Assembly: GCA_903856295.1 (NCBI GenBank)
Contig: CAIOBP010000189.1
Coordinates: forward strand, 1 to 32,211
Length of the DNA: 32,211 nt
Direction of reading: 5' to 3'
Origin: an uncultured Rhodospirillales bacterium
GTDB taxonomy: Bacteria; Pseudomonadota; Alphaproteobacteria; Azospirillales; Azospirillaceae
The translations under genes were made by a program, and so were the position numbers. The notes below the pieces were generated by a model. It saw only the letters and a program-made list of their open reading frames with translations. It did not search any database and was not told where the DNA came from. Shown piece after piece: positions 1 to 32,211 of the stretch (position 1 is its first letter; each line of letters starts with the position of its first letter).

Positions 1-71
1 AGGGATGGTCTCTCCGGTCTCACCAAGGGATAAATGATGGGAGGCCGGCGTCCGGCGTCAGGGGCAGGCAG

Positions 72-284
72 CTACTTCAACGCGAGTTCTAACCCACGAG
101 TCGCAGCGACGGGCCATAAAATAAGTGTTGCAATCATTGTTTCATTATTGCTCCCGTCTCCAAATCCAAGCTTGAGAGCGGCTATCGGAAGTGACAACAA
201 ATATAGCGTGACAAAGACTTTGAATAGCTCAAAGTTTTGGTGCCATTTGGTGCTTATCTTATCCATCCTTTCTTCGTTACTCAT
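72..284 (-). CDS. Small two-segment membrane protein downstream of CI
   Basis: Family not recognised. The 70-residue product has a charged N-terminus (starting MSNEERMDK) followed by two hydrophobic stretches separated by a short hydrophilic loop containing GDGSNNET, so it is probably an inner-membrane protein. The ATG at complement 282-284 has an AGGGA sequence about 10 nt upstream. A TTG at complement 306-308, overlapping the CI stop, would add eight residues and couple the gene to CI translation. It lies directly behind the repressor on the same strand, so it should be expressed in the lysogen. That position suits superinfection exclusion or another lysogenic-conversion function, but this is inference from location and membrane character only. 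The gene is clearly more AT-rich than the rest of the window. Confidence 0.6.
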   Translation of the reverse strand: MSNEERMDKISTKWHQNFELFKVFVTLYLLSLPIAALKLGFGDGSNNETMIATLILWPVAATRGLELALK

Positions 285-4503: not shown

Positions 4504-5177
4504 TGGCGCAGCGCGGGCAGAACCGAAGCACGGCGGTGATGAACCGGCGGGTGGAGGCTCCCGAGAGCCTCGACTATTTTCCGACGCCGCCCTGGGCGAC
4601 GCGGGCGTTGTGCCGGCATATCCTGGAGCCGGCGGACTGGTTGAGCCGGAGCGTCTGGGAGCCGGCTTGCGGCGAGGGCCACATGGCTCGGCCGCTCGGT
4701 GAATTCTTCGATCTCTGCATGGCGTCCGATATCTATCCCTATGGTCATGGTGCGATTTGCGATTTTCTGGGCGGGTTGCACCAAGCCGAGCACGCGCCCG
4801 CCGACTGGATCGTCACCAATCCGCCCTTCAATCTTGGCGAGGCGTTCGTGCTGCGGGCACTCTCGCTGGCCCGCTGCGGGGTGGCGATCTTCTGCCGGAC
4901 CAATTTTGCCGAGAGCGAAGGCCGGTACACGAGGTTATTCACCCCGTATCCGACCTCAGCCGAGGCGATCTTTGTCGAGCGGGTCAACATCGTCAAAGGC
5001 CGGCTCGATCGCCGCGCCTCGAATGCCACCAGCTATTCTTGGTTCGTCTGGCGCCGGGACCATGTCGGGCCAACGCTGCGTCTGCGAGTGCCGCCCTGCC
5101 GTGCGGCGCTGGAGCGGGATGAGGATTACCCGGTCGCGCCCACGGAACCGCTGGAACTGTTTGCGGAGGCATGTTGA
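4503..5177 (+). CDS. Orphan adenine-specific DNA methyltransferase
   Basis: This 224-residue protein carries the two hallmark motifs of an amino-methyltransferase. The AdoMet-binding motif is EPACGEGHMA at about residues 53-62, and the catalytic motif IV is TNPPFN at about 105-110. A YFPTPPW segment near residue 25 is typical of phage adenine methyltransferases of this compact type. The expected reaction is N6-methylation of adenine in DNA from S-adenosylmethionine. No restriction endonuclease is present nearby, so it probably protects phage DNA or modulates replication or transcription rather than being half of a restriction system. The target sequence cannot be read from the gene. It sits immediately upstream of the replication initiator, whose ATG overlaps its stop. 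Confidence 0.8.
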   Translation: MAQRGQNRSTAVMNRRVEAPESLDYFPTPPWATRALCRHILEPADWLSRSVWEPACGEGHMARPLGEFFDLCMASDIYPYGHGAICDFLGGLHQAEHAPADWIVTNPPFNLGEAFVLRALSLARCGVAIFCRTNFAESEGRYTRLFTPYPTSAEAIFVERVNIVKGRLDRRASNATSYSWFVWRRDHVGPTLRLRVPPCRAALERDEDYPVAPTEPLELFAEAC

Positions 5178-6460
5178 TGACAGAAGCCCTGCCACCACCG
5201 CTGCTGCCGCCTTATGTTTGGCTGGGAGGCTTTCCCTATACCCAGCTCCATGGCGATTTGCTTTTTACCTCGGAGACGTGGATTTGCGCCTCTGACGCAG
5301 CGCGGGTGGCATACCTTAAGCTGTATTGGGAGGCGTTCAAGTCGCACCCGGGCGGCTCGCTGCCCTCGGATGATCGCATGCTGGCCGAGCTGGCCGGCTA
5401 CGGCACATGGCCGGGGGCGGTGCGGGCGTGGCGGCGGATCAAGAAGACGGTGCTGGCCGAGTGGGTGCTGTGCTCGGATGGCCGCTGGTGGCACCCGTTT
5501 CTGGCCGGGCGGGTGGCGGCGGCGTGGAATCGGATGCAGGAGGATCGCTGGGAAGCCGAGAAGGCCCGGATCACCCGCGCCCATCAGCGGGCCTGCAAGG
5601 CGGCGCGGGCCTTGGATCAGGCGCAGCCCGATGCGCCGAAGATGCCGCCTCAGCCGAGCTTTGTCGAGGTCCGCGAGGTGGTTTTGAGTGGCGGTGTCGC
5701 GGCGACCGAGGGTGATATTTCGGCGCCTGTCGCGACGACAGAAGGCGTTGTCGCGGCGACCGAGGGTGATTGTCGCGGGTCTGTCGCGACGACAGAAGGC
5801 GTTGTCGCGGCGACAGAGGGTGATTGTCGCGGCGATTTGGCTCTTAATAAGAGAGATAAGAGAGAAAGAAAAAGGGTGGGTAGGTTGGCGCTGGATCCGC
5901 AAGAGGCCGCGACGGCGGCGGATGACGCGGCGACAGCGGACCCGGCAGAGGCGCTGATCGAGCTGTTTGATGCGGCGATGGTGCGGCATTGGGGCGCGGT
6001 GTCGTCGCGACAAGGGCCGGATGGGTCTGACCTGTCGATGGCGACCGACTGGCTGTTGGCCGGGGTTGACGCTGATTTGCTCGCCAAGGTTTGCGACGCA
6101 CAGTTCCGGCGCATGGTGGCGCGGCGGGTGGCACCACCGTTTTCGCTGCGCGGACTCGACGAGGATGTGCGGCGGGCGGTGGCGGCGGCGCGGGCTAAGC
6201 CCCCCGGCGCTCCGGCCGATCACCCGCTGGCGATGCCCGAGGGGTTCCCGGTCGCGGTCGCTGCCCTGGTCGGTCGGCTGGGGCGACAGCGCTTTGCCTC
6301 GTGGGTGTCGCCGCTGGTCGCGGTCGATGATGGCACCCGGGTCACGGTGCGGGCGCCGACGCTATACCACCGCGACTATGTGGCGACGCATTTGGCCCAT
6401 GATCTCGGGCCGTTGTTCGGCTGTCGGCGAATTGATTTCGAAACGGGAGGTGCGGCGTGA
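5177..6460 (+). CDS. O-like replication initiator (DUF1376-like N-terminus, DnaA-N-like C-terminus)
   Basis: The 427-residue protein has three parts. Residues about 10-130 resemble DUF1376 proteins (VAYLKLYWEAFKSHPGG, LPSDDRMLAELAGYG, DGRWWHPFLAGR). Residues about 172-225 are a low-complexity repeat encoded by DNA iterons. Residues about 355-427 resemble the DnaA N-terminal domain (LGRQRFASWVSPLVAV, VTVRAPTLYHRDYVATHL), which in host DnaA contacts DnaB and other partners. This suggests a phage initiator that binds its own intragenic origin and recruits host helicase, like lambda O. No helicase or loader is encoded nearby. ATG 5177 is preferred to 5171 because GGAGG at 5165-5169 is seven bases away and the start overlaps the methyltransferase stop. 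Confidence 0.75.
   Translation: MTEALPPPLLPPYVWLGGFPYTQLHGDLLFTSETWICASDAARVAYLKLYWEAFKSHPGGSLPSDDRMLAELAGYGTWPGAVRAWRRIKKTVLAEWVLCSDGRWWHPFLAGRVAAAWNRMQEDRWEAEKARITRAHQRACKAARALDQAQPDAPKMPPQPSFVEVREVVLSGGVAATEGDISAPVATTEGVVAATEGDCRGSVATTEGVVAATEGDCRGDLALNKRDKRERKRVGRLALDPQEAATAADDAATADPAEALIELFDAAMVRHWGAVSSRQGPDGSDLSMATDWLLAGVDADLLAKVCDAQFRRMVARRVAPPFSLRGLDEDVRRAVAAARAKPPGAPADHPLAMPEGFPVAVAALVGRLGRQRFASWVSPLVAVDDGTRVTVRAPTLYHRDYVATHLAHDLGPLFGCRRIDFETGGAA
5695..5840 (+). repeat. 54-bp tandem repeat, about 2.7 copies
   Basis: Units start at 5695, 5749 and 5803. Each is built from 22-bp, 11-bp and 21-bp subunits, and all but one of the 11-bp subunits begin with TGTCGCG. The copies differ at a few bases, so the DNA pattern is kept better than expected for a protein linker. 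The encoded peptide repeats VAATEGD and VATTEG. Confidence 0.9.
5695..6012. other. Candidate intragenic replication origin with iterons
   Basis: Inside the initiator gene, TGTCGCG-type units recur from 5695 to 5840 with a 54-bp period. The 13-mer TGTCGCGACGACA occurs at 5728-5740 and 5782-5794, and its exact reverse complement occurs at 6000-6012. Immediately after the repeats, 5836-5872 is purine- and AT-rich and includes the perfect hairpin CTCTTA-A-TAAGAG at 5841-5853. Iterons plus an adjacent AT-rich segment within the initiator gene is the lambda O/ori arrangement. The origin role is inference from architecture. Confidence 0.65.
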
Positions 6461-18222: not shown

Positions 18223-20580
18223 ATGCAAATTCCGACCTACGGCCCGGCGCCGACGATAGCCCCGAGCGGTGCCCCCGGCACTTATCAGTCTATTCAGACC
18301 AATGGCGACGAGTTTGGTGCCGGTATCGGTCAGAGCGCGCTCGGCGTTGGACAGGCTCTTCAGCATGCCGCCAACCAGACCTTCGAGACCGGGCTCAAAG
18401 CGCAGGCGATAGAGAATAAGACGGCGGCCAAAGACCTCGTCTACAACCAGTATCTGCCGGCGCAGAACGCCATCCTGTTCGGGACCTCGGACAAGCCCGG
18501 GTATTACGGCAAAACCGGCCAGGATGCCCTGAGCAGCCGCGAGGCCACGACCAAGGCCCTGACCGATTTGCACGCCAATCTGATCGGCTCGATCAGCAAT
18601 CCGGCGGTCAAGAGCATGGTCGAGGACTTCGTGACCCCGGAAATGCGCCGTGGTCTCGACGGCATCAGCAGCCATGCCAGCAAGGAATTTTTGACCTATC
18701 GCGACACGGTGTCGAGGGCGAGTACCGAGTCGGCGCTGAACAATGCCGTGCTGCATTACAGCGATCCCGACCAGTTCGGCACCTATCTCGACCGAGCCAG
18801 CAACGAGGCGCTGTCCAACGCCAAAGCCCAGGGCATCCAGGACCCGGCGGCGCTCGATACCATCGCTTCCGGGATCAGGGCCAAGGGCGTCGAAGCCGGG
18901 GTGATGCGCTTCCTAACCAACAATGACCCGGATGGGGCGAGAGGCTTTTACGAGCAGCACAAGGCGGTGCTGCGCGGCAATGCCCTGCTCGATGTCGAGC
19001 AAAAGCTGCATGCGACCAACACGGCGGCCCTCGGGCAGGCCAATGGCGCGGCCCTGCTCGGCGGCCAACCGCTCCCGGACCGTCCGACCGCGCTCGGGGT
19101 GCCGCGCGCCCAGGTCCAGAGCGCGCTGATCGGCGCCGCCAAAAGCAGCGGCGCCGATCCCTCCCACGCTCTGACCGTCGCCGAAATCGAAAGCTCGACC
19201 GGCAGCAATCTCGGCACCATCGGCAATCTCGGCCAGATCAAGGGCGGCACCACCAAGGCCGGGGATGTCGCCGGGCAGGCCCGCGACCTGTGCGCCGAAT
19301 GGCAGCGGGTCGGGCCGATCGCCGACCAGGCGGTGGGTGGCACGGCGCAGCCCTGGCAGCGCTATGTCGTCTATCAGCAGGGGCAGGGCGGCGGCCCGGC
19401 GCTGCTCCAGGCCGATGCCAAGGACAACGCGGTGGATGTACTGGCGCCGCTCTATAAGAGCCGCGACATCGCCCAATCGGCGATCACCGGCAATGGCGGC
19501 CGGCCCGATATGACCGCCGGTCAGTTCCTCGACTTCCTCCAGAGCAAATGGAACCAGAATGCCCGGCGCTGCGCCGTCGATCCCAATGCCCCGGCGACGG
19601 CCCCGGCCACGCCCCTGATGGCGCCCCAGCCGGCAACCAATCCGCATCAGGCATTGATCGAGTTCGATAAGGTTTATGCCCCGGCGCTTGATCGGGCCAA
19701 CGCGATTCCGAACCTCGCCGAGCGCGATGCCACCGTGCATTATCTGGAGACGCAAAAGGCCGTGCGCACCCAGGCCGCCGCCGCCTGGACGCAGCAAACC
19801 ACCGATGCCCTGATGAAACTCGGCATGGACCCGAAGTTTACCAATATCTCCCAGGTGCCGCCGGACATGGTGCCGGCGATGTCCGAAAACCCGCACATGG
19901 CGATTTGGTTGGAAAACCGCGCGAAATCGAATGCCGGGGGCGGTGACAGCAAGAGTTTCGACGATAACGCCAAGGCCGTCTACTATGATGCTTTGGGCAA
20001 GATGGCGAATGACCGCAAGGGCTTTGCTGCGGAAAACTTGACCGACCCGAAATATTCCCACGCGTTGCCGGATAATTACCTGCATGAGCTGATGAATAAG
20101 CAATTCGTTATTCGGGAAAACTTGAACAGCGGCGACACCGAGGTTTCGCCCCGGTTGCTCTCTTCGGCGAAGAGCATTGCGCACCCGATGTTGGAAGCCG
20201 CCGGGATCAAAACCCAGGTGACGGATAAGTCTCCTGATAATGTCAAGCAAACCTATAACCAGTTCATCGGCCGCCTGACCTCTGACCTTCAGGACTATAA
20301 GATTGCGCATAAAGGTGACGATCCCGACGCCGTTGGCATGCGGTCGATCGTTTCATCTCTGTTGACCCAAGGGCTGCAACGGGATTCCGGCTGGATATGG
20401 GACCGCGAGGTGCGGAATTTCCAGGTTTCGCCCGATCAGTTCTACCTGAAGCCCGCCGCCGCGGAGCTGCCCGATCTCAGGCGCCGGTTCCTGGCGGCCA
20501 ACGGCCGGCTCCCGAAGACTGATGATGAGCTGGTGCGCGCTTATACCAAATGGAAGACGCTGACCGGAGGGGCGAAGTAA
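18223..20580 (+). CDS. Internal core protein (gp15-like) with lytic-transglycosylase-like segment
   Basis: The 785-residue protein is mainly helical and lies at the T7 gp15 position. Residues about 305-395 look like a soluble lytic transglycosylase module: GVPRAQVQSALIGAAKSSGA, ALTVAEIESSTGSNLG with the expected catalytic Glu in an ES pair, then GNLGQIKGG and PWQRYVVYQQGQGG. Such a domain would cut peptidoglycan during DNA entry. In T7 this activity resides in gp16, so here it seems to have moved to the neighbour. A proline/alanine-rich linker (PATAPATPLMAPQP) follows at about residue 460. AAGGA precedes the ATG. The stop overlaps the next ATG. Confidence 0.75.
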   Translation: MQIPTYGPAPTIAPSGAPGTYQSIQTNGDEFGAGIGQSALGVGQALQHAANQTFETGLKAQAIENKTAAKDLVYNQYLPAQNAILFGTSDKPGYYGKTGQDALSSREATTKALTDLHANLIGSISNPAVKSMVEDFVTPEMRRGLDGISSHASKEFLTYRDTVSRASTESALNNAVLHYSDPDQFGTYLDRASNEALSNAKAQGIQDPAALDTIASGIRAKGVEAGVMRFLTNNDPDGARGFYEQHKAVLRGNALLDVEQKLHATNTAALGQANGAALLGGQPLPDRPTALGVPRAQVQSALIGAAKSSGADPSHALTVAEIESSTGSNLGTIGNLGQIKGGTTKAGDVAGQARDLCAEWQRVGPIADQAVGGTAQPWQRYVVYQQGQGGGPALLQADAKDNAVDVLAPLYKSRDIAQSAITGNGGRPDMTAGQFLDFLQSKWNQNARRCAVDPNAPATAPATPLMAPQPATNPHQALIEFDKVYAPALDRANAIPNLAERDATVHYLETQKAVRTQAAAAWTQQTTDALMKLGMDPKFTNISQVPPDMVPAMSENPHMAIWLENRAKSNAGGGDSKSFDDNAKAVYYDALGKMANDRKGFAAENLTDPKYSHALPDNYLHELMNKQFVIRENLNSGDTEVSPRLLSSAKSIAHPMLEAAGIKTQVTDKSPDNVKQTYNQFIGRLTSDLQDYKIAHKGDDPDAVGMRSIVSSLLTQGLQRDSGWIWDREVRNFQVSPDQFYLKPAAAELPDLRRRFLAANGRLPKTDDELVRAYTKWKTLTGGAK

Positions 20581-23500
20581 TGGATCAGAGTTTCGAGGAT
20601 TTCCTGCGCGCCGACCAGCAGCCCGCGCCGGCGCCGACATCGGGCATGGCGTTTGAGGATTTCCTGCGCGCCGATCGGGCCATGACCCAATCCCAGGCGG
20701 CGGGCGCGGTCATCGGCGCTGCTGGCACCAATCCAGACCAAGAGGCCAAGGCCGTCCAGGTCGGGAAGCAACTCGGATTACCGGCGGCGGTGGTCCGTAC
20801 CGATCTCCCCCAGCACGAGCAGGACGCGGCCCTACAGCGCAATGTCGCATTGCTGCGCAACAACCCGGCTTTGGCCGAATGGGTGGCGGCCAACCCCGAG
20901 CGCACGAAGCTTGCTCATGATGATTTCGGGTCTCTGGCCAATATCGAGACCGCGATAACCCGGTGGGGCATGAGCCTTGGCACGCTGGCTCCCATGACCA
21001 GCACGCCTGGACATGATCTCCTTAAAGCCGCATTTCCGGCATTCGAGAATGCTTGGTCCGCAGGCATGGACGAAGGCGCGCAGCAAAATGTCCAGGGCTT
21101 TGCGGCCTATGACAGCCGCGGCAAGGTTCATCCGCCGGAAGCGCACCGTACCGACTATGGCAATCTGCTGTACAACGCCACCAACTGGATCGCTTCGAAC
21201 ATCGGCGGCGTCTACGACCTGGGAGCGCGCGCGGTCCCTTGGGCCATCTCTGGAGCTTCGTCAGGCGCCGCGATCGGCGCCATTGGCGGGCCGTTGGCGC
21301 CGATCAGCTCCGCCGCCGGGGCCGTGGCCGGCTTCGGTTCCGGCTTCTTGGGTAAGTTCTTCAGCGATAATTTCAAGATCGGGGCCGGCGAAGTGATGGC
21401 GGCACACGATCAGAGCCGCAGTCGTGAGGGGCTGGAAGTCGATCCGACCGTGGCTCAGGCGTCGGCGGTGGTTGGCGGTCTGCTCTATGCCGGCTTCAAT
21501 AGCTTCGGGCTCGGGCATTTCAGCTCCGCCGCCGCCGCGTCGGCGGCCAAGCTGTTCGCCCGCGACGCCGTGACCGAGGCGGTGACCAAACCGACGGTCC
21601 AGGCGGCGATCGCCAAAACCGCCGGCACCCTGACCAGGACCGGGCTTGAGGGCGGCGCGCTCGGCGTGCTGGTCGAAAGCTCGAAGATTGCCGGCGAGCA
21701 GCTCGGACGCATGCTGTCCTCGGGCGATTTTGCCACCATCCTCAACGATCCCGAGCAGCGGAGCCAAGCGCTTGACCGGGTGGTGCAGTCGGCCGAGCAA
21801 ATGGCGCTGCTGGCCGGCGCCTTTCATGCCGTGCCGATGGTCTCGACCTTCGCCGCCGATCTGTTGCACGCCCGTCAGGCCCACATCGACGCCGGCAATC
21901 TCCAAGCGGTGGTCGATGGCACCACCGACAGCAAGCTGCGCGGCCGGGCTCCTGACGCCTTCACCGATTTCCTGCGCCAGCAGCTCGACGGCACGCCGGT
22001 CGAACACCTCTATCTGCCCGGCGAGAAGGTCCAGGAGTTGTACCAGTCGTTCGGCTTCGATCCGCACGCGCTGGATGACGATCCGCTGTTCAACTTCGTC
22101 CCCGACATGAGCCACCAGCTTGAGCAGGCGGTGGCCACCGGCGGCGATGTCAAAATCCCGGCGGCGGACTATGTCAGCCGCTTTGCCGGCACCCCGGTCC
22201 ATGAGGCGCTCAAGGGCGATCTGCGCACCCGCCCGGATGGCTTTAGCCTCAACGATGCCGCCCGAGCCGTCGAACACCAGCGCAGTTTGCGCGAGTTGGC
22301 GGTGGACATCCAGCGTCAGTCCGAACAGGCGGGCAAACAAGCCGAGCTGGCGCAGCAGGTTTACCGCGATCTCCAGGACAAGTTGCGCGCCGCCGGCTAT
22401 GGCTCCGAGGCGGCCAATAAGCAGGCGGCCCTGCTCGCCGCCCATTACCAGACCCGGGCCGAGCGCATGGAGGGCAAGCTCGGCAGCGCCCTTGACGCCT
22501 ATCGCGCGGCCAATCTTGAGGTCCGTCAGGTGCTGCCCGACAGCCTGCACGGGGTCGATGGCGATCAGCTCAATCAGATGATCGCGGCGCTCAAAGACCC
22601 CCAGGCGCGCAAGGTGCCGACCGAGCGCGCGGCGCTGGGGCCGAGTCTGGCCGAGTTCGTCGCCAAGCGCGGCGGTGTTCATGATGCCGGCGGCGACCTC
22701 CGGGCGATGGATGCGCATCTGTGGCACCGGGGCAAGCGCGGCATGCCCCGGTTGCTGCGCGAGGTCTCGGAGTATGACCCGCTCAAGGCCCATGAGTTCG
22801 GCCAGGATGAAACCGCTCACGCCGCCTGGGAGGCGGGCTATTTTCCCGATCACGCCGAGCGGCCGGAGATCCGCGATTTTCAGGAAGCTCTGCGCACCGA
22901 GCTGGCGGGCAAGCCGCGCTATGCCGACCACGCCTATAGCGGCGAGCTGGGCTGGCAACAGGCCCTCGGCGATCTCGAACAGACCCTGGACCGGTTGGGC
23001 ATCGACCCGAAGAAGGCCAGTGTCGCCGAAATCCGCACCGCGCTTGCCCATTACGCCCAGGATGCGGTCGGTGGCTTCGAACAGGGGGAACGACCGTCAA
23101 GGCCGGCCATCGCTCTGGCCGGGGATGAGATTGCGCCGCGTGGCAGCGATGCCAAAACCGCGCGCGATGCCGCCGTGGCGTGGTATCGGGCCAATCTCCA
23201 GGGGACCAAGGCCGAAACCTCGATCGGTCCGGTCGAGTTCACCGGTCGCGGTCGAGGTAAGATGAAAATCGGCCTTTCCGACCCGGAAACCGCACGGTAT
23301 GTCGCGTCAATCCGTGATGTGCTCGAACGGGGCGAGTACAAGGGCAGCCGAGATAATGCCAAGCTGGACAGTAAGCCAACAGTGCTGCGCTATCATCGGT
23401 TTGAGGCCGAAGTCGCAATCGGGAGCGGGGAGCCGCATCGGATCGCAGTGCTCGTGGAAGAACACACGAACGGTAAGCTGTTCTATGACCTATATCGAGA

Positions 23501-26500
23501 TCCCCCGGAGACTAATCCCGCAGTTTCAAGCACGGTATTCTCCGGGGGAGCCGAAGGCGGTAAAACCACCTACCATCAGACAATAGCATCAGTAGGCGGT
23601 GATTTCAATCTGAGCCTCTCACAATCCGCCGCCGAAGGCCGGGCGCGGGGCTCGATCGTGTTCGAGCGCGGGCGCACGGTCATCAACCTCTTCGAAAAGC
23701 GCGACCTTTCGACCCTTCTGCACGAATCCGGGCATTTGTTCCTGGAAGAGCTGGTGTCCGATGCCGCCCATCCGGAGGCGCCCGAGGGCGTGCGCGCCGA
23801 TCTTGCCGCGACCCTGAAATGGCTGGGGGTGGAGGATGCCGGCCAGATCGGCCGCGAGCAGCACGAGCAGTTCGCCCGGGGCTTCGAGACTTACCTCATG
23901 GAAGGCAAGGCGCCCTCGCTGGCCCTGGGCCGGGTGTTCGAGACGGTCAAGGCCTGGCTGACTGGCATCTATCGCAGCCTCGCTGCGCTCAAGGCGCCGC
24001 TGTCGCCCGAAATGCGCAGCGTGTTCGATCGTATGCTGGCGAGCGACGACGCCATTCGGGTTGCGCGCGAGCGGCAGCGCCTGGGCGCGCTGTTCCATAG
24101 TGCCGAAGATGCCGGCATGAGCGACCGCCAGTTCACCAAATATCAGGAGGTGGCGCGGGCGGCCAAAGAGCGGGCAAACCAAGCTCTGCTCGCCAAAACC
24201 ATGGCCGAGGTCCGGCGGCGGCGCACCGAGCAGTGGAAGACCGAAGAGGCGGGGGTGCGCGAGGAGGCGGCGCGCGAGGTCAACCGCCGGCCCGACTTCC
24301 AGGCCCTGCATTATCTGCGCACCGGCACGTTTCTCGACGGCGCTGCCACCGAGGGGCTGGAGCGGATCAAGCTCAACCGGGCCGATATCGTGGCCGCGTT
24401 CGGCGGCAACGAGGCCATCCTCAAGCAACTGCCCAGGGGCGTGCCGCCCTATGTGGTGGAGAGTGGCGGCGTCCACCCCGATCTCGTTGCCGGGCTGTTC
24501 GGCTACAAAACCGGCAAGTCGATGCTGACCGCGCTGCGCAAGCTGGAACGGGAGGCGCAGAAGATCAAAGTCGAGCAGCCGGGCGACAAGCGCTCGCTGC
24601 GCAACCGGCTGATCGATGAGAAAACCGCCGCGCGCATGGCCGAGCGCCATGGCGATATCCTGGCCGATGGCAGCATCGAGGCCGAGGCGGTGGACGCCAT
24701 CCACAATGACGCATCCATGACCCAACTCGGCGAGGAGCTGCGGGCGCTGGGACGGCGCGAGCGGAAACCACGGTCCGAGGCTGCGGGGGAGCCAGCCGGA
24801 GAGCCGGCCCCCGATCCGACGGCATGGCCGCAATCGCCGGTCGAGTTCGCCCGTGAGTGGGCGGCCGAACGGGCGGCGGCCCTCAGGGTCGAGGATGCCA
24901 CCCCGGCCACCGCCGCCGCCCATGCTCGCGACGAGGCCAAGGCCGGGCGCGCGGTCGAGCGGGCGCTGCTCAAGGGCGACCGTGCCGAGGCGATGCGCCA
25001 GAAGGAACGGCAAATCCTCAGCGCAGCCCTCTATCGCGCGGCCAAGGACGCGGTGACCGAGGCCGAGGACGCCCTTGACACCTTCCGCAAGCTGGGGCGC
25101 AAGCTGACGGTCGCGGGCATGGAACAACCCTATCTCGATCGCATCCATCAGCTGATCGGCGCCTTCGGCCTGCCGCTCAAGCGCAACCTCGCCGAGCTGG
25201 AGCGCGGGCTCGGTCGCGAAACCCTGGAAGGCTTTGTCGGCCGCAAGCTGGCCGAGGGCCGGGAGATCACCGTCGATCCGGCGCTTTATCAGTTCTCGAC
25301 CGCCAAGCCGGTCGGGCAGCTGACCATTGCCGAGTTGCGGGCGCTCCGTGATGCGATCAAATCGCTGGCCCATAACGGCCGCGAGGAACAGACCATCCTC
25401 GTTGACGGCAAACGGGCTGACCTCAAGGGGCTGGTCGAGGAGGCGGTCAACCAGGTCTCTCAGTTGCCCCAGCGCGAGGTGCCACCGGAGATCAACCCCG
25501 GCACGGCGCCGGGGCTGCGCGGGCTGGCCGAGAAGATCGGCGGCATTGCCCGCGCCTGCGACTCCAGCTTGCTCAAAATGGAGCAGCTCTTCGACTGGCT
25601 CGATCACCGCAACCCCAACGGTCTCTTCAACCGCACGGTGTTCAACCGGCTGAAGCTGGCGCAGCACCGCGAGAACGACCGGCTGTTGGCGGTGTCCAGG
25701 CGCCTGGAAGAGCTGGGCAAGGCGCAGCCCGAGGGCTGGAGCAAAACCCTGGATGAGCGGTTGACGCTGCCCGAGTTGCGCGACCCAAGTAAGCCCGGTG
25801 AGACGGTCTATCGCAAGAAAGACCTGCTCGCCATGGCGCTCAATGTCGGCAATGCCGACAACTTCAAGAAGCTGGTGGTCGGCTATAAATGGGCGACGCT
25901 CGACGACGCCCGCTCGATCGATGCCGCCAAATCGCGGGTGATGGCGGTGCTGGACCGCGAGTTGAGCAAGCCCGATTGGAACTTCGTGCAAGGGGTGTGG
26001 GATATCTTCGAGAGCTTCTCGCCCGAGGTCGATGCCCTGCAACGCCGGCTCAGCGGCATCGGCATCACCAAGGTCGAGGCCTCGCCGGTCACGACTCGCC
26101 ACGGCGCGTTGCGCGGCGGTTATTACCCGGTGGTGTTCGACCCGATGAAATCGCCGAAGGCGGCCCACAACAAGGCCGGCGGCGAGGCTTTGTTCGAGGA
26201 TGGCTATTTCCGGCCCGGTACCGCCAAGGGTCACACCATCGCCCGCGTCGAAGCCAACGATCCGCTACACCTCAGTCTCGATATCATCCCCTATAAGCTG
26301 CGGCAGGTCGTGCATGATCTGGAATTCCGCGAGGCGATCATCGACGCCGATAAGCTGCTTTCGAACGATCAGGTCAAGCAGGGCATCACGGCGGCCTTCG
26401 GCCCGGAATACACCGCCCAGCTCCGGCCCTGGCTGCAATCGATCGCCAACGACGCCAACCGCAACGACCGCACCCTCGCCGGCATCGACAATTTCCTGCG

Positions 26501-27620
26501 GCAAGCGCGGGTCAACGCCACCGTGGTCGGCATCGGCTTTCGGGTGTCTACGGTGCTCAAGCACGGGGGCTCCGCGCTCGGCATGTCGGTCGGCGAACTG
26601 GGGCCGAAATGGTCGCGGTTGGCCTGCGCCGAACTCTACGGCTCAAACGGCACCTATGGCCGCACCCGCGCCATGATCCTGGAGAAGTCGGGCGAGCTGC
26701 GCCACCGCATGGACAGCATCGACCGCGATGTCCGCGAATCGCTGCGCACGGTGGCCGGCGAGTTCGGCTATGGCAACGGCGCGATGGCAACCGCCCAGTG
26801 GTTGCGCGCCGAGGCGGTGCATTACAGCCATTACATGGTCGCCCGTGCCGATATGGAGAGCGCTTATTTTGTCTGGCTCGGCGCCTATCGCCGGGCCGAG
26901 CAGGCGGGCAGGACCGAGGGCGAGGCGGTGGCGGCGGCCGATAAGCTGGTGCGCCAAGCCCATGGCGCCCAGGGCATCATGGATCTGGCCGCGATTCAGC
27001 GCGGACCCGAGGCCCTGAAACTAGCCACCATGTTCTATGGCTTCTTCAACCACAACTACAACCGGCTGCGCGACACCGGCCGGCTGGCCGGTGAAGGGGT
27101 GGACAAATGGAAGGCCGGCGACCGGGCCGGCGCGGGCAAGGACTTCACCCTGGTGCTGGCGCGCTCCATGACCTACCTGCTGATGCCGGCGTTGATCGAA
27201 GCCATGGTCTCCGAGGGCTTCCCCAACGACGAGAACGAGGAAAGCTGGCCGGGCTGGGCGGCGCGCGCCCTGACCGCCCAGGTCACCGGCGGTGTGCCGG
27301 TCGTCCGCGACATCGTCAAGGCCGAACTCAGCGGCCACAATTACGAGATGACGCCGGTCGAGCATGCGGTCAACTCGCTGCTGAGCTTCGCCTTCAAGGA
27401 TATTCCGGATCAGCTCGGCCTGACCGATCACCAGCCTTCGGAGCGCTTCCTGCGTCATGCCATCGAGACGCCGGGCTACATTCTCGGCCTGCCCACCGGC
27501 GCCCCGGCCGGCACCGCGCAATATCTCTGGGATTATATGGACGGCCGGGAAGACCCGCAGAATTTCCTCGACTTCCTACGCGGCGTCGCCTTCGGCCCGA
27601 CACCCAAAACCAAGCACTGA
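20580..27620 (+). CDS. Giant polyvalent internal virion protein (gp16-like position) with LPD3-like and HExxH domains
   Basis: At 2346 residues this is the largest gene, in the T7 gp16 position. The N-terminus carries the peptide FEDFLRAD twice within 30 residues. Residues about 215-261 are a glycine-zipper-like hydrophobic segment (GASSGAAIGAIGGPLAPISS) that could enter membranes. Residues about 863-1015 resemble large-polyvalent-protein domain LPD3 (WYRANLQGT, IGPVEFTGRGRGKMKIGLSD). LHESGHLFLEEL follows, with His1048-Glu1049 and His1052 as an HExxH zinc motif and Glu1103 in FARGFETYL as a plausible third ligand. Long helical regions fill the rest. Virion location and ejection into the cell are inferred from position; peptidase activity from the motif. 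ATG 20580 overlaps the preceding stop. Confidence 0.85.
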   Translation: MDQSFEDFLRADQQPAPAPTSGMAFEDFLRADRAMTQSQAAGAVIGAAGTNPDQEAKAVQVGKQLGLPAAVVRTDLPQHEQDAALQRNVALLRNNPALAEWVAANPERTKLAHDDFGSLANIETAITRWGMSLGTLAPMTSTPGHDLLKAAFPAFENAWSAGMDEGAQQNVQGFAAYDSRGKVHPPEAHRTDYGNLLYNATNWIASNIGGVYDLGARAVPWAISGASSGAAIGAIGGPLAPISSAAGAVAGFGSGFLGKFFSDNFKIGAGEVMAAHDQSRSREGLEVDPTVAQASAVVGGLLYAGFNSFGLGHFSSAAAASAAKLFARDAVTEAVTKPTVQAAIAKTAGTLTRTGLEGGALGVLVESSKIAGEQLGRMLSSGDFATILNDPEQRSQALDRVVQSAEQMALLAGAFHAVPMVSTFAADLLHARQAHIDAGNLQAVVDGTTDSKLRGRAPDAFTDFLRQQLDGTPVEHLYLPGEKVQELYQSFGFDPHALDDDPLFNFVPDMSHQLEQAVATGGDVKIPAADYVSRFAGTPVHEALKGDLRTRPDGFSLNDAARAVEHQRSLRELAVDIQRQSEQAGKQAELAQQVYRDLQDKLRAAGYGSEAANKQAALLAAHYQTRAERMEGKLGSALDAYRAANLEVRQVLPDSLHGVDGDQLNQMIAALKDPQARKVPTERAALGPSLAEFVAKRGGVHDAGGDLRAMDAHLWHRGKRGMPRLLREVSEYDPLKAHEFGQDETAHAAWEAGYFPDHAERPEIRDFQEALRTELAGKPRYADHAYSGELGWQQALGDLEQTLDRLGIDPKKASVAEIRTALAHYAQDAVGGFEQGERPSRPAIALAGDEIAPRGSDAKTARDAAVAWYRANLQGTKAETSIGPVEFTGRGRGKMKIGLSDPETARYVASIRDVLERGEYKGSRDNAKLDSKPTVLRYHRFEAEVAIGSGEPHRIAVLVEEHTNGKLFYDLYRDPPETNPAVSSTVFSGGAEGGKTTYHQTIASVGGDFNLSLSQSAAEGRARGSIVFERGRTVINLFEKRDLSTLLHESGHLFLEELVSDAAHPEAPEGVRADLAATLKWLGVEDAGQIGREQHEQFARGFETYLMEGKAPSLALGRVFETVKAWLTGIYRSLAALKAPLSPEMRSVFDRMLASDDAIRVARERQRLGALFHSAEDAGMSDRQFTKYQEVARAAKERANQALLAKTMAEVRRRRTEQWKTEEAGVREEAAREVNRRPDFQALHYLRTGTFLDGAATEGLERIKLNRADIVAAFGGNEAILKQLPRGVPPYVVESGGVHPDLVAGLFGYKTGKSMLTALRKLEREAQKIKVEQPGDKRSLRNRLIDEKTAARMAERHGDILADGSIEAEAVDAIHNDASMTQLGEELRALGRRERKPRSEAAGEPAGEPAPDPTAWPQSPVEFAREWAAERAAALRVEDATPATAAAHARDEAKAGRAVERALLKGDRAEAMRQKERQILSAALYRAAKDAVTEAEDALDTFRKLGRKLTVAGMEQPYLDRIHQLIGAFGLPLKRNLAELERGLGRETLEGFVGRKLAEGREITVDPALYQFSTAKPVGQLTIAELRALRDAIKSLAHNGREEQTILVDGKRADLKGLVEEAVNQVSQLPQREVPPEINPGTAPGLRGLAEKIGGIARACDSSLLKMEQLFDWLDHRNPNGLFNRTVFNRLKLAQHRENDRLLAVSRRLEELGKAQPEGWSKTLDERLTLPELRDPSKPGETVYRKKDLLAMALNVGNADNFKKLVVGYKWATLDDARSIDAAKSRVMAVLDRELSKPDWNFVQGVWDIFESFSPEVDALQRRLSGIGITKVEASPVTTRHGALRGGYYPVVFDPMKSPKAAHNKAGGEALFEDGYFRPGTAKGHTIARVEANDPLHLSLDIIPYKLRQVVHDLEFREAIIDADKLLSNDQVKQGITAAFGPEYTAQLRPWLQSIANDANRNDRTLAGIDNFLRQARVNATVVGIGFRVSTVLKHGGSALGMSVGELGPKWSRLACAELYGSNGTYGRTRAMILEKSGELRHRMDSIDRDVRESLRTVAGEFGYGNGAMATAQWLRAEAVHYSHYMVARADMESAYFVWLGAYRRAEQAGRTEGEAVAAADKLVRQAHGAQGIMDLAAIQRGPEALKLATMFYGFFNHNYNRLRDTGRLAGEGVDKWKAGDRAGAGKDFTLVLARSMTYLLMPALIEAMVSEGFPNDENEESWPGWAARALTAQVTGGVPVVRDIVKAELSGHNYEMTPVEHAVNSLLSFAFKDIPDQLGLTDHQPSERFLRHAIETPGYILGLPTGAPAGTAQYLWDYMDGREDPQNFLDFLRGVAFGPTPKTKH

Positions 27621-27687: not shown

Positions 27688-29481
27688 ATGACGATTTCCA
27701 ACCCCGCCGCGTCGGTGACCCTGCAGGGCAACGGCGCCACGACATCCTGGCCGTATTCATTTTTGATTCCGGATGGCGCCAGCATCACGGTCAGCATCAC
27801 CGACAACACTCAGCCCTATCCGCTGGTGACGGTGCTGACCTCCGGCCAGTATGGCGTGTCCGGGCTAGGCAACCCCAGCGGCGGCTCGGTGACCTATCCG
27901 ACCTCGGGGGCGCCGCTGGCCTCCGGCTGGGCGCTGACCATCGAGCGCACGATGGCGGCAACCCAGTCCACCAGCTTGGCCGCCCAGGGCGCGGTCTATC
28001 CGGCGGTGCTGGAAGCGGCGCTCGACCGGGTGACCATGCTCAGCCAGCAGCTGGCGGCCAAGCTGGCGCGGGCGCTGCTGGTGCCGGTCGGCAGCACGAT
28101 CAACCCGACCAGCTATGTCGGCACCGTGCTGAGCCAAATGGCAAGCGCCCTCAGCTCGGCAGCGGGTGCGGCCGGCGCGGCGGCGGGCAGTGCCAGTGCG
28201 GCGGCCGGCAGTGCTGGGGCGGCAGCTGGAAGTGCCTCTGTTGCCGCCATTCAGGCCGGAATCGCGACCTCTCAGGTCAGCAGCTGCACAACCCTGGCTG
28301 CCCAGGCGCTGAGCAACGCCCAACTGTCACAGCTCGCGATGACGACGGCGCAGTTCGGCGCCCTGACCGCGACGACACAGGCGGCCATGGCACTGACGTC
28401 ATCTGGTCTGGCCCTGGTTGCGGCCAGTACGGCGCAGGGATCGGCCATCACGGCCAGTCAACAGGCAGCGATCGCCACCACCGCCGCCGGCACCGCCCAG
28501 GGATCGGCGGTGACTGCCAATCAGCAGGCGGCGATTGCCATCACCGCTGCCAGCACGGCCCAGGGCTCGGCGGTGACGGCCGGGCAATATGCAACCTCTG
28601 CGCTCCAGGCGCTGACCTCTGCGCAGGTATCGGCACTCTCGGCGACAGCGGCGCTTGTGACCTGTCAGGCGAGCGCCGTCACGGCCGGACAATATGCAAC
28701 CTCCGCGCTCCAGGCACTCACCTCTGCGCAGGCGTCGGCGCTCTCGGCGACAGCGGCGCTTGTGACCTGTCAGGCGAGCGCGGTGACGGCCGGGCAGTAC
28801 GCAACCTCCGCGCTTCAGACACTTACCTCTGCGCAGGCATCAGCGCTATCGGCAGCGATCGCGGCTGGCATTGCCACGGCGGCAATCAATAACTTTACTG
28901 GTGCAAGCTCGACAAACCTGACAATAGGGACCGGAGATATTTCTCTCATTGTCAATACAAACAAAGGATTCGCAATAAGCCAGCCAGTACAAATCATCGA
29001 TCAGTCCAACGCTAACAACTATATGTATGGGCTGATCACCGGATACACGGCTGCCACTGGGGCGATTACCGCTAGCATCACATCGACTGGCGGCTCTGGC
29101 ACGAAGAGTGCGTGGTATGTGAATCTCGTTGGTATCCAGGGGCTGACAGGGTCGGCGGGAAGCCTCGCCTATGGCATGAGCACCGGTACCGTGGATGCGC
29201 TCACGGCATCGATTTCTGGCCCGACGACCTCTGACGGCACCACCGTTCTGATCGGGATATTTGGCGCCAATCTTACCACCGGCCCGACATTTAAGCTCAA
29301 CGGCGATTCCGTGAAAACGATCTCAAAGCTTGGTGGGAATATGGTCGCCAAGGGTGATCTTCAGGATAATAGCACAGCTATTCTCGCCTACAGGTCTACA
29401 CTTGATAAGTGGGACCTTCAGAACCCAAAGGTTCCCCTTGGCATGTCGCCAATCGTCTCCGCTATCATCTTTGGAGGGTAA
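27688..29481 (+). CDS. Tail fibre protein with T7-fibre-like N-terminus
   Basis: The 597-residue protein begins with a virion-anchoring domain (NPAASVTLQGNGATTSWPYS, SITDNTQPYPLVTVLTSGQY, LTIERTMAATQSTSL) like the N-terminal part of T7-type fibres. Residues about 140-395 are an alanine/glutamine-rich shaft made of near-identical repeats, including 35-residue units, probably a trimeric coiled-coil stalk. From about residue 400 the composition changes: the tip (NLTIGTGDISLIVNTNKGFA, MVAKGDLQDNSTAILAYR) is lower in GC and richer in Asn, Thr and Ile. The tip probably contacts the host receptor and seems to have a different history from the anchor. The next gene starts four bases after the stop. 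Confidence 0.85.
   Translation: MTISNPAASVTLQGNGATTSWPYSFLIPDGASITVSITDNTQPYPLVTVLTSGQYGVSGLGNPSGGSVTYPTSGAPLASGWALTIERTMAATQSTSLAAQGAVYPAVLEAALDRVTMLSQQLAAKLARALLVPVGSTINPTSYVGTVLSQMASALSSAAGAAGAAAGSASAAAGSAGAAAGSASVAAIQAGIATSQVSSCTTLAAQALSNAQLSQLAMTTAQFGALTATTQAAMALTSSGLALVAASTAQGSAITASQQAAIATTAAGTAQGSAVTANQQAAIAITAASTAQGSAVTAGQYATSALQALTSAQVSALSATAALVTCQASAVTAGQYATSALQALTSAQASALSATAALVTCQASAVTAGQYATSALQTLTSAQASALSAAIAAGIATAAINNFTGASSTNLTIGTGDISLIVNTNKGFAISQPVQIIDQSNANNYMYGLITGYTAATGAITASITSTGGSGTKSAWYVNLVGIQGLTGSAGSLAYGMSTGTVDALTASISGPTTSDGTTVLIGIFGANLTTGPTFKLNGDSVKTISKLGGNMVAKGDLQDNSTAILAYRSTLDKWDLQNPKVPLGMSPIVSAIIFGG
28573..28850 (+). repeat. 105-bp tandem repeat in the fibre shaft
   Basis: Units begin at 28573, 28678 and 28783 (the last partial). 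Each encodes 35 residues including VTAGQYATSALQALTSAQ. Copies are nearly identical at DNA level, so the shaft length could change by recombination. Confidence 0.9.
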
Positions 29482-31130: not shown

Positions 31131-31583
31131 ATGGCGCGAGGACTCAGACAGCTGGCCACCTGCCTGACCGGACTGGCGGCGGCAGCGGTCGGCGGTGGCA
31201 TTGTGGCAGCAATAATCATGACGGCTGGGGCATCGCACGCCGACACTCAGCCATCGCTCTCCCGGACGTCCGATGGTGCCCTGGTCGGCGCCTGGGACGT
31301 CGCGGACCACTCTCTCGGCGTGATGTCGCAATGGCACCCGGGAGTTCAGGCCCTGGTGGTGTTGTCGGTGATCGGCTGCTTGTTCGGCTTGGCGTGGCGG
31401 TGGCTGACGCTCTCCCAGTCCCGCAGCGATCTGGCCGAGCTGCTGCACGCCATCCACGGCATCGCCGATGATCTCGGCGATCTCCGCTCTCAATTCGCCC
31501 AGCACATCATGACCTGCCCGGCGGCCAACTTCGCCCGCAAGGTGCGGTCGATTCGCACCGCTCACGATGAGGACCCGTCATGA
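31131..31583 (+). CDS. Holin-like two-span membrane protein
   Basis: The 150-residue protein has a basic N-terminus (MARGLRQ), a first hydrophobic span (LTGLAAAAVGGGIVAAIIMT), a loop of about 30 residues, a second span (VQALVVLSVIGCLFGLAW) ending in WRWLTL, and a polar helical tail. The predicted N-in/C-in topology fits a class II-type holin, which would release the endolysin. Its position directly before the endolysin supports this. GGGAGGA lies seven bases before ATG 31131, which is preferred to an in-frame TTG at 31125. The last 23 residues before the final serine are encoded by copy 1 of a 71-bp tandem repeat and recur at the endolysin N-terminus. Confidence 0.65.
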   Translation: MARGLRQLATCLTGLAAAAVGGGIVAAIIMTAGASHADTQPSLSRTSDGALVGAWDVADHSLGVMSQWHPGVQALVVLSVIGCLFGLAWRWLTLSQSRSDLAELLHAIHGIADDLGDLRSQFAQHIMTCPAANFARKVRSIRTAHDEDPS

Positions 31584-31648
31584 CCTGCCCGGCGGCCAAC
31601 TTCGCCCGCAAGGTGCGGTCGATTCGCACCGCTCACGATGAGGACCCG
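31507..31648 (+). repeat. Perfect 71-bp tandem duplication at the holin/endolysin junction
   Basis: Bases 31507-31577 and 31578-31648 are identical. The first copy encodes the end of the holin-like protein, the second the start of the endolysin, in the same reading of the repeat. The repeat junction creates both the upstream stop and the downstream start (TCATGA). Confidence 0.97.
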
Positions 31649-32119
31649 GACCAACCGTCCCACGCCCTCGATCTTGCCGAACAGGTGGCCCGGCACTTCG
31701 AAGGGCTATACCTCAAGGCTTACCGTTGTCCGGCCGGAGTGCTGACCATCGGCTACGGTCACACCGGCCCCGATGTCACCGAAGGCAGGGTCATTACCGC
31801 CACCATGGCCGAAGAGCTGCTGGCTCATGACTTGGCTGAGGCCGCGCTCGCCGTGGACCATCTGGTGAAGGCCAAAATCACCGAAGCCCAGCACGCCGCG
31901 CTCACCGATTTCGTGTTCAACCTTGGGCGGGGCGCGTTGGCCGGCTCGACATTGCTGGCACGGCTCAATGATGGCGACCTGCCGCGCGCCGGGGCCGAGT
32001 TCCTGAAGTGGGACAAGGCCCATATCGACGGCCAGCTCACCACCTTGCCCGGCCTGACCAAGCGCCGGGCCTGGGCCGTGCAAGTTTTTTTCTGTAAATT
32101 CGCGCAGAAGACGACTTGA
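31580..32119 (+). CDS. Endolysin, GH24 lysozyme; 3' end probably replaced by an insertion sequence
   Basis: The 179-residue protein is a T4/P22-type lysozyme. The triad Glu41-8-Cys50-5-Thr56 is visible in HFEGLYLKAYRCPAGVLTIG followed by YGHTG; a catalytic-position Cys also occurs in P1 Lyz. Other family segments are ALTDFVFNLGRGALAGSTLL, LNDGDLPRAGAEFLKWDKAH and GLTKRRAWAV. It cleaves peptidoglycan. No signal or SAR segment is present, so it needs the holin. The N-terminal 23 residues come from the tandem repeat. After RRAWAV the sequence turns AT-rich, and the final residues (QVFFCKFAQKTT) look foreign, probably read from an insertion-sequence end. Confidence 0.85.
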   Translation: MTCPAANFARKVRSIRTAHDEDPDQPSHALDLAEQVARHFEGLYLKAYRCPAGVLTIGYGHTGPDVTEGRVITATMAEELLAHDLAEAALAVDHLVKAKITEAQHAALTDFVFNLGRGALAGSTLLARLNDGDLPRAGAEFLKWDKAHIDGQLTTLPGLTKRRAWAVQVFFCKFAQKTT

Positions 32120-32211
32120 TTCGAGGCGGGTAGTTACGCCGCCAGATTTATGTATATCTTACCAGTCATCCAGTCCTCATCGACCTCTGCGAGCAATGCT
32201 GAAACCAAGCG
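32080..32211 (-). mobile_element. Probable end of an IS256/Mutator-type insertion sequence (partial)
   Basis: The sequence changes abruptly to AT-rich DNA with a run of seven T near 32084-32090, then the C-terminal end of a transposase-like frame on the minus strand. The left boundary is approximate (about 32070-32090). The terminal inverted repeat cannot be confirmed because the other end lies outside the window. Confidence 0.5.
32134..32211 (-). CDS. Partial IS256/Mutator-type transposase (C-terminus)
   Basis: Reading leftward from the window edge, an open frame encodes RLVSALLAEVDEDWMTGKIY then INLAA and a TAA stop at 32134-32136. The ending LVSALL.E.DE.W.TGK.Y closely resembles C-termini of IS256/Mutator-family DDE transposases. 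Only 25 residues are visible, so catalytic residues cannot be checked and it is unknown whether the gene is intact beyond the window. Confidence 0.55.
   Translation of the reverse strand, partial: RLVSALLAEVDEDWMTGKIYINLAA

What the first reader, a model, noticed from the sequence alone, without database searches (positions are those of the whole stretch)
31507..31648. A 71-bp tandem duplication separates holin-like protein and endolysin; one copy would encode a fusion
The two copies are identical. Because 71 is not a multiple of three, the duplication shifts frame: the first copy ends the membrane protein with a TGA at the junction, and the second starts the lysozyme at the overlapping ATG. 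Removing one copy joins both genes into a single in-frame ORF. The duplication also puts a GAGG site from the end of copy 1 seven bases before the new start. A tandem repeat thus supplies stop, start and ribosome-binding site at once. It may be a recent event that split a membrane-tethered lysozyme, or a reversible slippage switch between fused and separate lysis proteins.
Basis: partly seen in the sequence, partly recalled or inferred. Interest (0 to 1): 0.85.

Follow-up and report, generated by a model that had tools for sequence, protein, structure and literature searches.

The report
Tandem duplication splits phage lysis genes
In a prophage of an Azospirillum-family bacterium, a one-off exact 71-base duplication sits exactly where a membrane (holin-like) gene meets a lysozyme gene and supplies the stop, ribosome-binding site and start that keep them apart; this is a neat accident of gene evolution, and nothing found here shows a reversible switch.

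Summary
In detail: two identical, abutting 71-bp copies (31507-31577, 31578-31648). Frame arithmetic, TGA/ATG overlap and the GAGG seven bases upstream also hold. The lysozyme ATG has a usable Shine-Dalgarno in copy 2 (-6.0 kcal/mol, like other genes here), but none in the copy-1 (single-copy) context (+1.2).

The window is a whole contig bounded by a high-copy IS, whose end supplies the lysozyme's last 15 codons and stop, so the prophage is IS-damaged. Second, relatives exist: Azospirillum genomes carry a distant holin homologue next to a homologous lysozyme, as separate genes, usually with a small gene between, and without the shared 23 residues. None of 181 related lysozymes is fused downstream of a two-TM holin; 20 distinct ones carry C-terminal TM tethers. 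No one-copy allele or close relative was found.

Best reading: a real, recent duplication inside a continuous holin-lysozyme frame (perhaps created by an earlier deletion) restored a gene boundary. The single-copy fusion is inferred, not seen. A functional tethered ancestor is unlikely, because its lysozyme would face the cytoplasm. A switch has no support. An assembly artefact is unlikely: no other exact duplication over 33 bp in 373 kb of the genome.

The parts
31131..31583 (+). Holin-like membrane protein, 150 aa; two hydrophobic segments (about residues 14-34 and 72-93); last 24 residues lie in copy 1 plus the junction
   Evidence: ORF; no Pfam/PHROG family; homologous to ORFs upstream of lysozymes in Azospirillum genomes, 28-29% identity over residues 15-126
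31507..31577 (+). Copy 1 of the 71-bp tandem duplication (3' end of the holin-like gene)
31578..31648 (+). Copy 2 of the 71-bp tandem duplication (5' end of the lysozyme gene)
31569..31572 (+). GAGG Shine-Dalgarno of the lysozyme, from the end of copy 1
   Evidence: anti-SD pairing -6.0 kcal/mol, against +1.2 for the same ATG in copy-1 context
31580..31583 (+). ATGA overlap: lysozyme start ATG 31580-31582 and holin stop TGA 31581-31583
31580..32119 (+). GH24 lysozyme (endolysin) ORF, 179 aa; catalytic E41-C50-T56
   Evidence: PF00959 E=4.9e-40; PHROG endolysin 3.4e-46; GH24 fold in PDB; E41, C50, T56 invariant
32075..32211 (+). End of a high-copy insertion sequence; supplies lysozyme residues 165-179 and the stop; boundary good to about 2 bp
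   Evidence: same sequence at about 30 other contig ends of the genome
1..115 (+). IS end, probably the other end of the same element, at the left contig edge
   Evidence: 33 further places in the genome
30817..31128 (+). Small conserved phage protein directly upstream of the holin-like gene (phrog_7759, unknown function)

Best explanation
A single recent event duplicated 71 bp in tandem inside what was then a continuous frame running from a two-TM holin-like protein into a GH24 lysozyme. Copy 2 is entered out of frame, so the holin ends at the TGA of the new ATGA overlap. The lysozyme now starts at the ATG of copy 2, using the GAGG carried at the end of copy 1, and the overlap should couple its translation to the holin's. 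The cassette then works like any ordinary separate holin and endolysin pair. The preceding in-frame junction is inferred. Since distant relatives keep the genes separate with a small gene between, it may itself have come from a deletion in the prophage. Shown: the repeat, frames, stop, start, calculated Shine-Dalgarno, families, IS. Inferred: the one-copy ancestor, the earlier deletion, that the two proteins are made and work.
For: Exact 2.0-copy repeat. Both copies are read in the same frame, with coding-like GC3 of 0.87. Lysozyme start in copy 2: anti-SD energy -6.0 kcal/mol, within the range of most window genes (-5.3 to -11.8); the same ATG without the duplication upstream: +1.2. Separate holin and lysozyme genes in Azospirillum relatives. 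The lysozyme N-terminus encoded by the unit is predicted disordered (residues 1-26 below pLDDT 50), so a redundant 23-residue tail and leader are tolerable. Assembly looks sound: no exact tandem repeat above 33 bp in 373 kb of the same genome.
Against: No one-copy or otherwise closely related allele was found anywhere, so the order of events is not tested. The breakpoints show no microhomology, so ordinary slippage does not explain the event well, and a non-homologous end-joining Ku gene was not found. The holin relatives are only about 28-35% identical. The prophage is IS-damaged, so the new boundary may never have been tested by selection.
Confidence: 0.6

Rival explanations
1. A long-established membrane-tethered holin-lysozyme fusion was functional in the ancestor and was recently split by the duplication.
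For: One copy would give a continuous frame; the unit has coding-like GC3 in that frame; a natural holin-endolysin fusion exists in Clostridium sporogenes (PMC9527704).
Against: None of 181 related lysozymes is fused behind a two-TM holin; tethers occur at the C-terminus instead. Azospirillum relatives are separate genes. N-terminal Arg residues and Arg residues after TM2 suggest both ends are cytoplasmic, so a fused lysozyme would sit on the wrong side of the membrane (inference from sequence).
Confidence: 0.15
2. Neutral decay: the duplication is one more accident in a dying prophage, with no effect on a lysis system that no longer works.
For: Both contig ends lie in a high-copy IS and one has replaced the lysozyme's 3' end.
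Against: The lysozyme keeps its catalytic residues, and the model has IS-coded residues completing the last helix; the repressor and structural genes examined are open.
Confidence: 0.3
3. Reversible switch: slippage between two copies and one copy toggles separate and fused lysis proteins.
For: Tandem duplications inside capsule genes cause reversible phase variation in pneumococcus (Waite et al. 2001 and 2003, cited in PMC4243769).
Against: Only one allele known; no homologue keeps a repeat; two copies with no microhomology look like a single accident; no benefit of the fused state is evident.
Confidence: 0.04
4. Assembly artefact: the true sequence has one copy.
For: Draft genome of 255 contigs; reads were not available.
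Against: Contigs extend roughly 90-140 bp into the collapsed IS, which suggests word or read lengths well above 71; an assembler needs reads across the new junction; no other exact duplication above 33 bp in 373 kb.
Confidence: 0.07

Closest known systems
Separate holin / small ORF / GH24 lysozyme cassettes of Azospirillum genomes (L011, L015, L018, L137, L146)
   Same: Homologous lysozyme (50-60% identity) and a distant holin homologue in the same order
   Different: Separate genes, no tandem duplication, no shared 23 residues, an extra small ORF overlapping the holin stop
Reversible tandem duplications in pneumococcal capsule genes (Waite et al. 2001, 2003; via PMC4243769)
   Same: A short tandem duplication inside coding sequence changes the reading frame
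   Different: There it inactivates one gene and reversion is observed; here it creates a boundary between two genes and no reversion has been seen
Natural holin-endolysin fusion of Clostridium sporogenes (PMC9527704)
   Same: What the one-copy state would resemble: holin at the N-terminus, endolysin at the C-terminus
   Different: TpeE-type one-TM holin, unrelated proteins, a fixed fusion in six genomes
GH24 lysozymes with a C-terminal membrane anchor (L026, L187, L231) and the SpmX muramidase
   Same: GH24 lysozyme tied to the membrane
   Different: The anchor follows the lysozyme instead of preceding it; the SpmX tether is recalled from general knowledge

Membership tests
GH24 phage lysozyme / endolysin | Pfam PF00959 match above cut-off | tested here: met
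   137.2 bits against cut-off 22.3
GH24 phage lysozyme / endolysin | Catalytic Glu-(Asp/Cys)-Thr triad | tested here: met
   E41, C50, T56 invariant in alignment A2
GH24 phage lysozyme / endolysin | Intact native C-terminus | tested here: not met
   residues 165-179 come from an IS; the final helix is still predicted
Holin | Small membrane protein next to the endolysin | tested here: met
   two hydrophobic segments in 150 aa, directly upstream; homologues in the same position
Holin | Match to a curated holin family | tested here: not met
   no Pfam or PHROG family
Holin | Forms membrane lesions at a set time | not testable with these tools
   needs expression
SAR / signal-anchor endolysin | N-terminal hydrophobic anchor on the lysozyme | tested here: not met
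   lysozyme residues 1-26 are polar and disordered
Phase-variable tandem duplication | Both alleles present in a population, with reversion | not testable with these tools
   no reads; no second allele in the collections
Holin-endolysin fusion protein | Single uninterrupted ORF | tested here: not met
   the present sequence has stop 31581-31583 and start 31580

The most novel reading that the evidence does not exclude
The 71-bp repeat is a contingency locus: loss and regain of one copy during prophage replication switches lysis between separate holin plus lysozyme and a membrane-bound fusion, giving subpopulations with different lysis behaviour.
Probability: 0.04. Interest if true: 0.75.

Novelty: new variant of a known kind. 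Interest (0 to 1): 0.33.

Why it matters
Gene fusion and fission are usually inferred from old events. Here one recent, exact duplication appears to have produced stop codon, ribosome-binding site and start codon in a single step, showing how a phage lysis cassette can be cut into two genes without point mutations. It is a clear teaching example more than a new system.

Tried and rejected
Close relatives of the holin or whole cassette: none in 50,697 phage records by DNA or protein, in IMG/VR, or in 82 family genomes outside the window's own. A weak hit in G108 lies among flagellar genes and was dropped. Related phages by the portal protein: best 46%; the two annotated ones I opened and the fetched stretches gave no homologue of this holin or lysozyme. 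I tried to find the contig carrying the rest of the lysozyme after the IS by reading about 33 IS right ends; none obviously continues it. A profile of the diverged holins was too weak to scan with. Ku-dependent end joining as the source of a microhomology-free duplication: no Ku gene found. The structure model of the holin is low confidence (mean pLDDT 54.8) and is not used.

Full report
Observation. The window holds an exact head-to-tail duplication of 71 bp, 31507-31577 and 31578-31648, with 100% identity and no indels. The base before copy 1 differs from the base before copy 2, and the base after copy 2 differs from the base after copy 1, so the repeat is exactly two copies and the breakpoints share no microhomology.

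Frames. The holin-like ORF (31131-31583) and the lysozyme ORF (31580-32119) are in different frames, and the offset between the copies (71 = 2 mod 3) accounts for it. The ATG at 31509 in copy 1 is in the holin's frame; the same ATG at 31580 in copy 2 starts the lysozyme. Both copies are therefore read in the same frame relative to the unit, and both proteins contain MTCPAANFARKVRSIRTAHDEDP. With one copy the frame would run on from the holin into the lysozyme. This rests on frame arithmetic; the fused sequence was not built.

Translation signals. The GAGG at 31569-31572 is 7 bases from ATG 31580. Calculated pairing with the 3' end of 16S rRNA is -6.0 kcal/mol there, similar to most other genes of the window (-5.3 to -11.8, with one at -2.8). 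For the copy-1 ATG, whose upstream context is what a one-copy allele would have, it is +1.2. So the duplication adds a usable ribosome-binding site where none existed. The unit has GC3 of 0.87 in the shared frame against 0.61 and 0.57 at the other positions, like the flanking genes, so this frame is probably long-standing coding sequence; 23 codons is a small sample.

What the genes are. The downstream ORF is a GH24 lysozyme (PF00959, 4.9e-40; PHROG endolysin; GH24 structures in PDB) with an invariant E41-C50-T56. The upstream ORF has two hydrophobic segments and no curated family. The phage is a temperate podovirus-like element: CI-like repressor, terminase, portal/head-tail adaptor, major head protein, tail proteins, with portal relatives such as Cobetia phage Carin1 and Pseudomonas phage HU1.

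The window's edges. The window is the whole contig C189 of a 4.0-Mb draft in 255 contigs. Its right end (32075-32211) and left end (1 to about 115) recur at about 30 other contig ends each, which is the pattern of a high-copy insertion sequence. The lysozyme's native codons end at A164 (about 32074); residues 165-179 and the stop are IS DNA. In homologues about ten more residues follow this point. A model built on six sequences extends the terminal helix through residue 171 with high confidence, so activity may be kept, but AlphaFold is not a sensitive test of such a change.

Relatives. Lysozymes 50-64% identical are common there. Upstream of some of them lies a distant holin homologue (28-29% identity over residues 15-126, ending HIDQHDRRVA). 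Its stop overlaps the start of a small ORF, which is followed by the lysozyme; in other genomes the same holin precedes an unrelated endolysin. In all cases that could be read the genes are separate. The peptide encoded by the 71-bp unit has no convincing match in 306 fetched loci. Among 181 lysozyme loci, three have a single N-terminal hydrophobic stretch, 20 distinct ones have a C-terminal membrane segment, and none follows a two-TM holin in frame.

Interpretation. The simplest history is: an in-frame junction of holin and lysozyme, perhaps by deletion of the small ORF and the lysozyme leader; then the exact duplication, which re-created a boundary; and, at an unknown time, the IS insertion. 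Only the duplication and the insertion are shown. A functional tethered ancestor is less likely because N-terminal arginines and arginines after TM2 point to both ends being cytoplasmic, so a fused lysozyme would be kept from the wall; the published C. sporogenes fusion (PMC9527704) shows that such proteins can nevertheless exist. The slippage switch is a hypothesis without data. Pneumococcal capsule genes show that tandem duplications can be reversible (PMC4243769), but no second allele, no read data and no conserved repeat support it here.

Artefact check. Contigs run about 90-140 bp into the collapsed IS, suggesting read or word lengths well above 71, and a false second copy would need reads crossing a junction that does not exist. 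In 373 kb of the same genome no other exact tandem repeat with a period above 33 bp was found. An artefact is unlikely but only reads can exclude it.

Verdict. Observation confirmed; interpretation partly supported; ordinary mechanism with an unusually tidy outcome. Interest 0.33.

Noticed in passing
window 1-115 and 32075-32211; about 30 further contig ends of G000: A high-copy insertion sequence bounds the contig on both sides and fragments the assembly; ends begin with GGCC-like sequence. Family not identified.
   Followed up: partly
28423-28853: 63-bp and 105-bp coding tandem repeats in the tail-fibre-like gene, all multiples of three, unlike the 71-bp repeat.
   Followed up: no
5690-5832: 54-bp in-frame tandem repeat inside the putative replication protein gene 5171-6460.
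   Followed up: no
20550-27620: A single 2356-aa ORF, in the place where related phage Carin1 has an 8.5-kb gene; probably a giant internal virion protein.
   Followed up: no
G000:C129:9234-10619: A second portal-like gene (28% identity), probably another prophage of the same genome.
   Followed up: no
L018:1112-1285, also L137, L146: Azospirillum lysis cassettes carry a small ORF (MPEPPAQPDAQQ...) overlapping the holin stop and preceding the lysozyme; absent from the window.
   Followed up: partly
L026, L187, L231, L250, L264 and others: GH24 lysozymes with a C-terminal transmembrane segment are common among relatives (20 distinct of 181 loci).
   Followed up: partly
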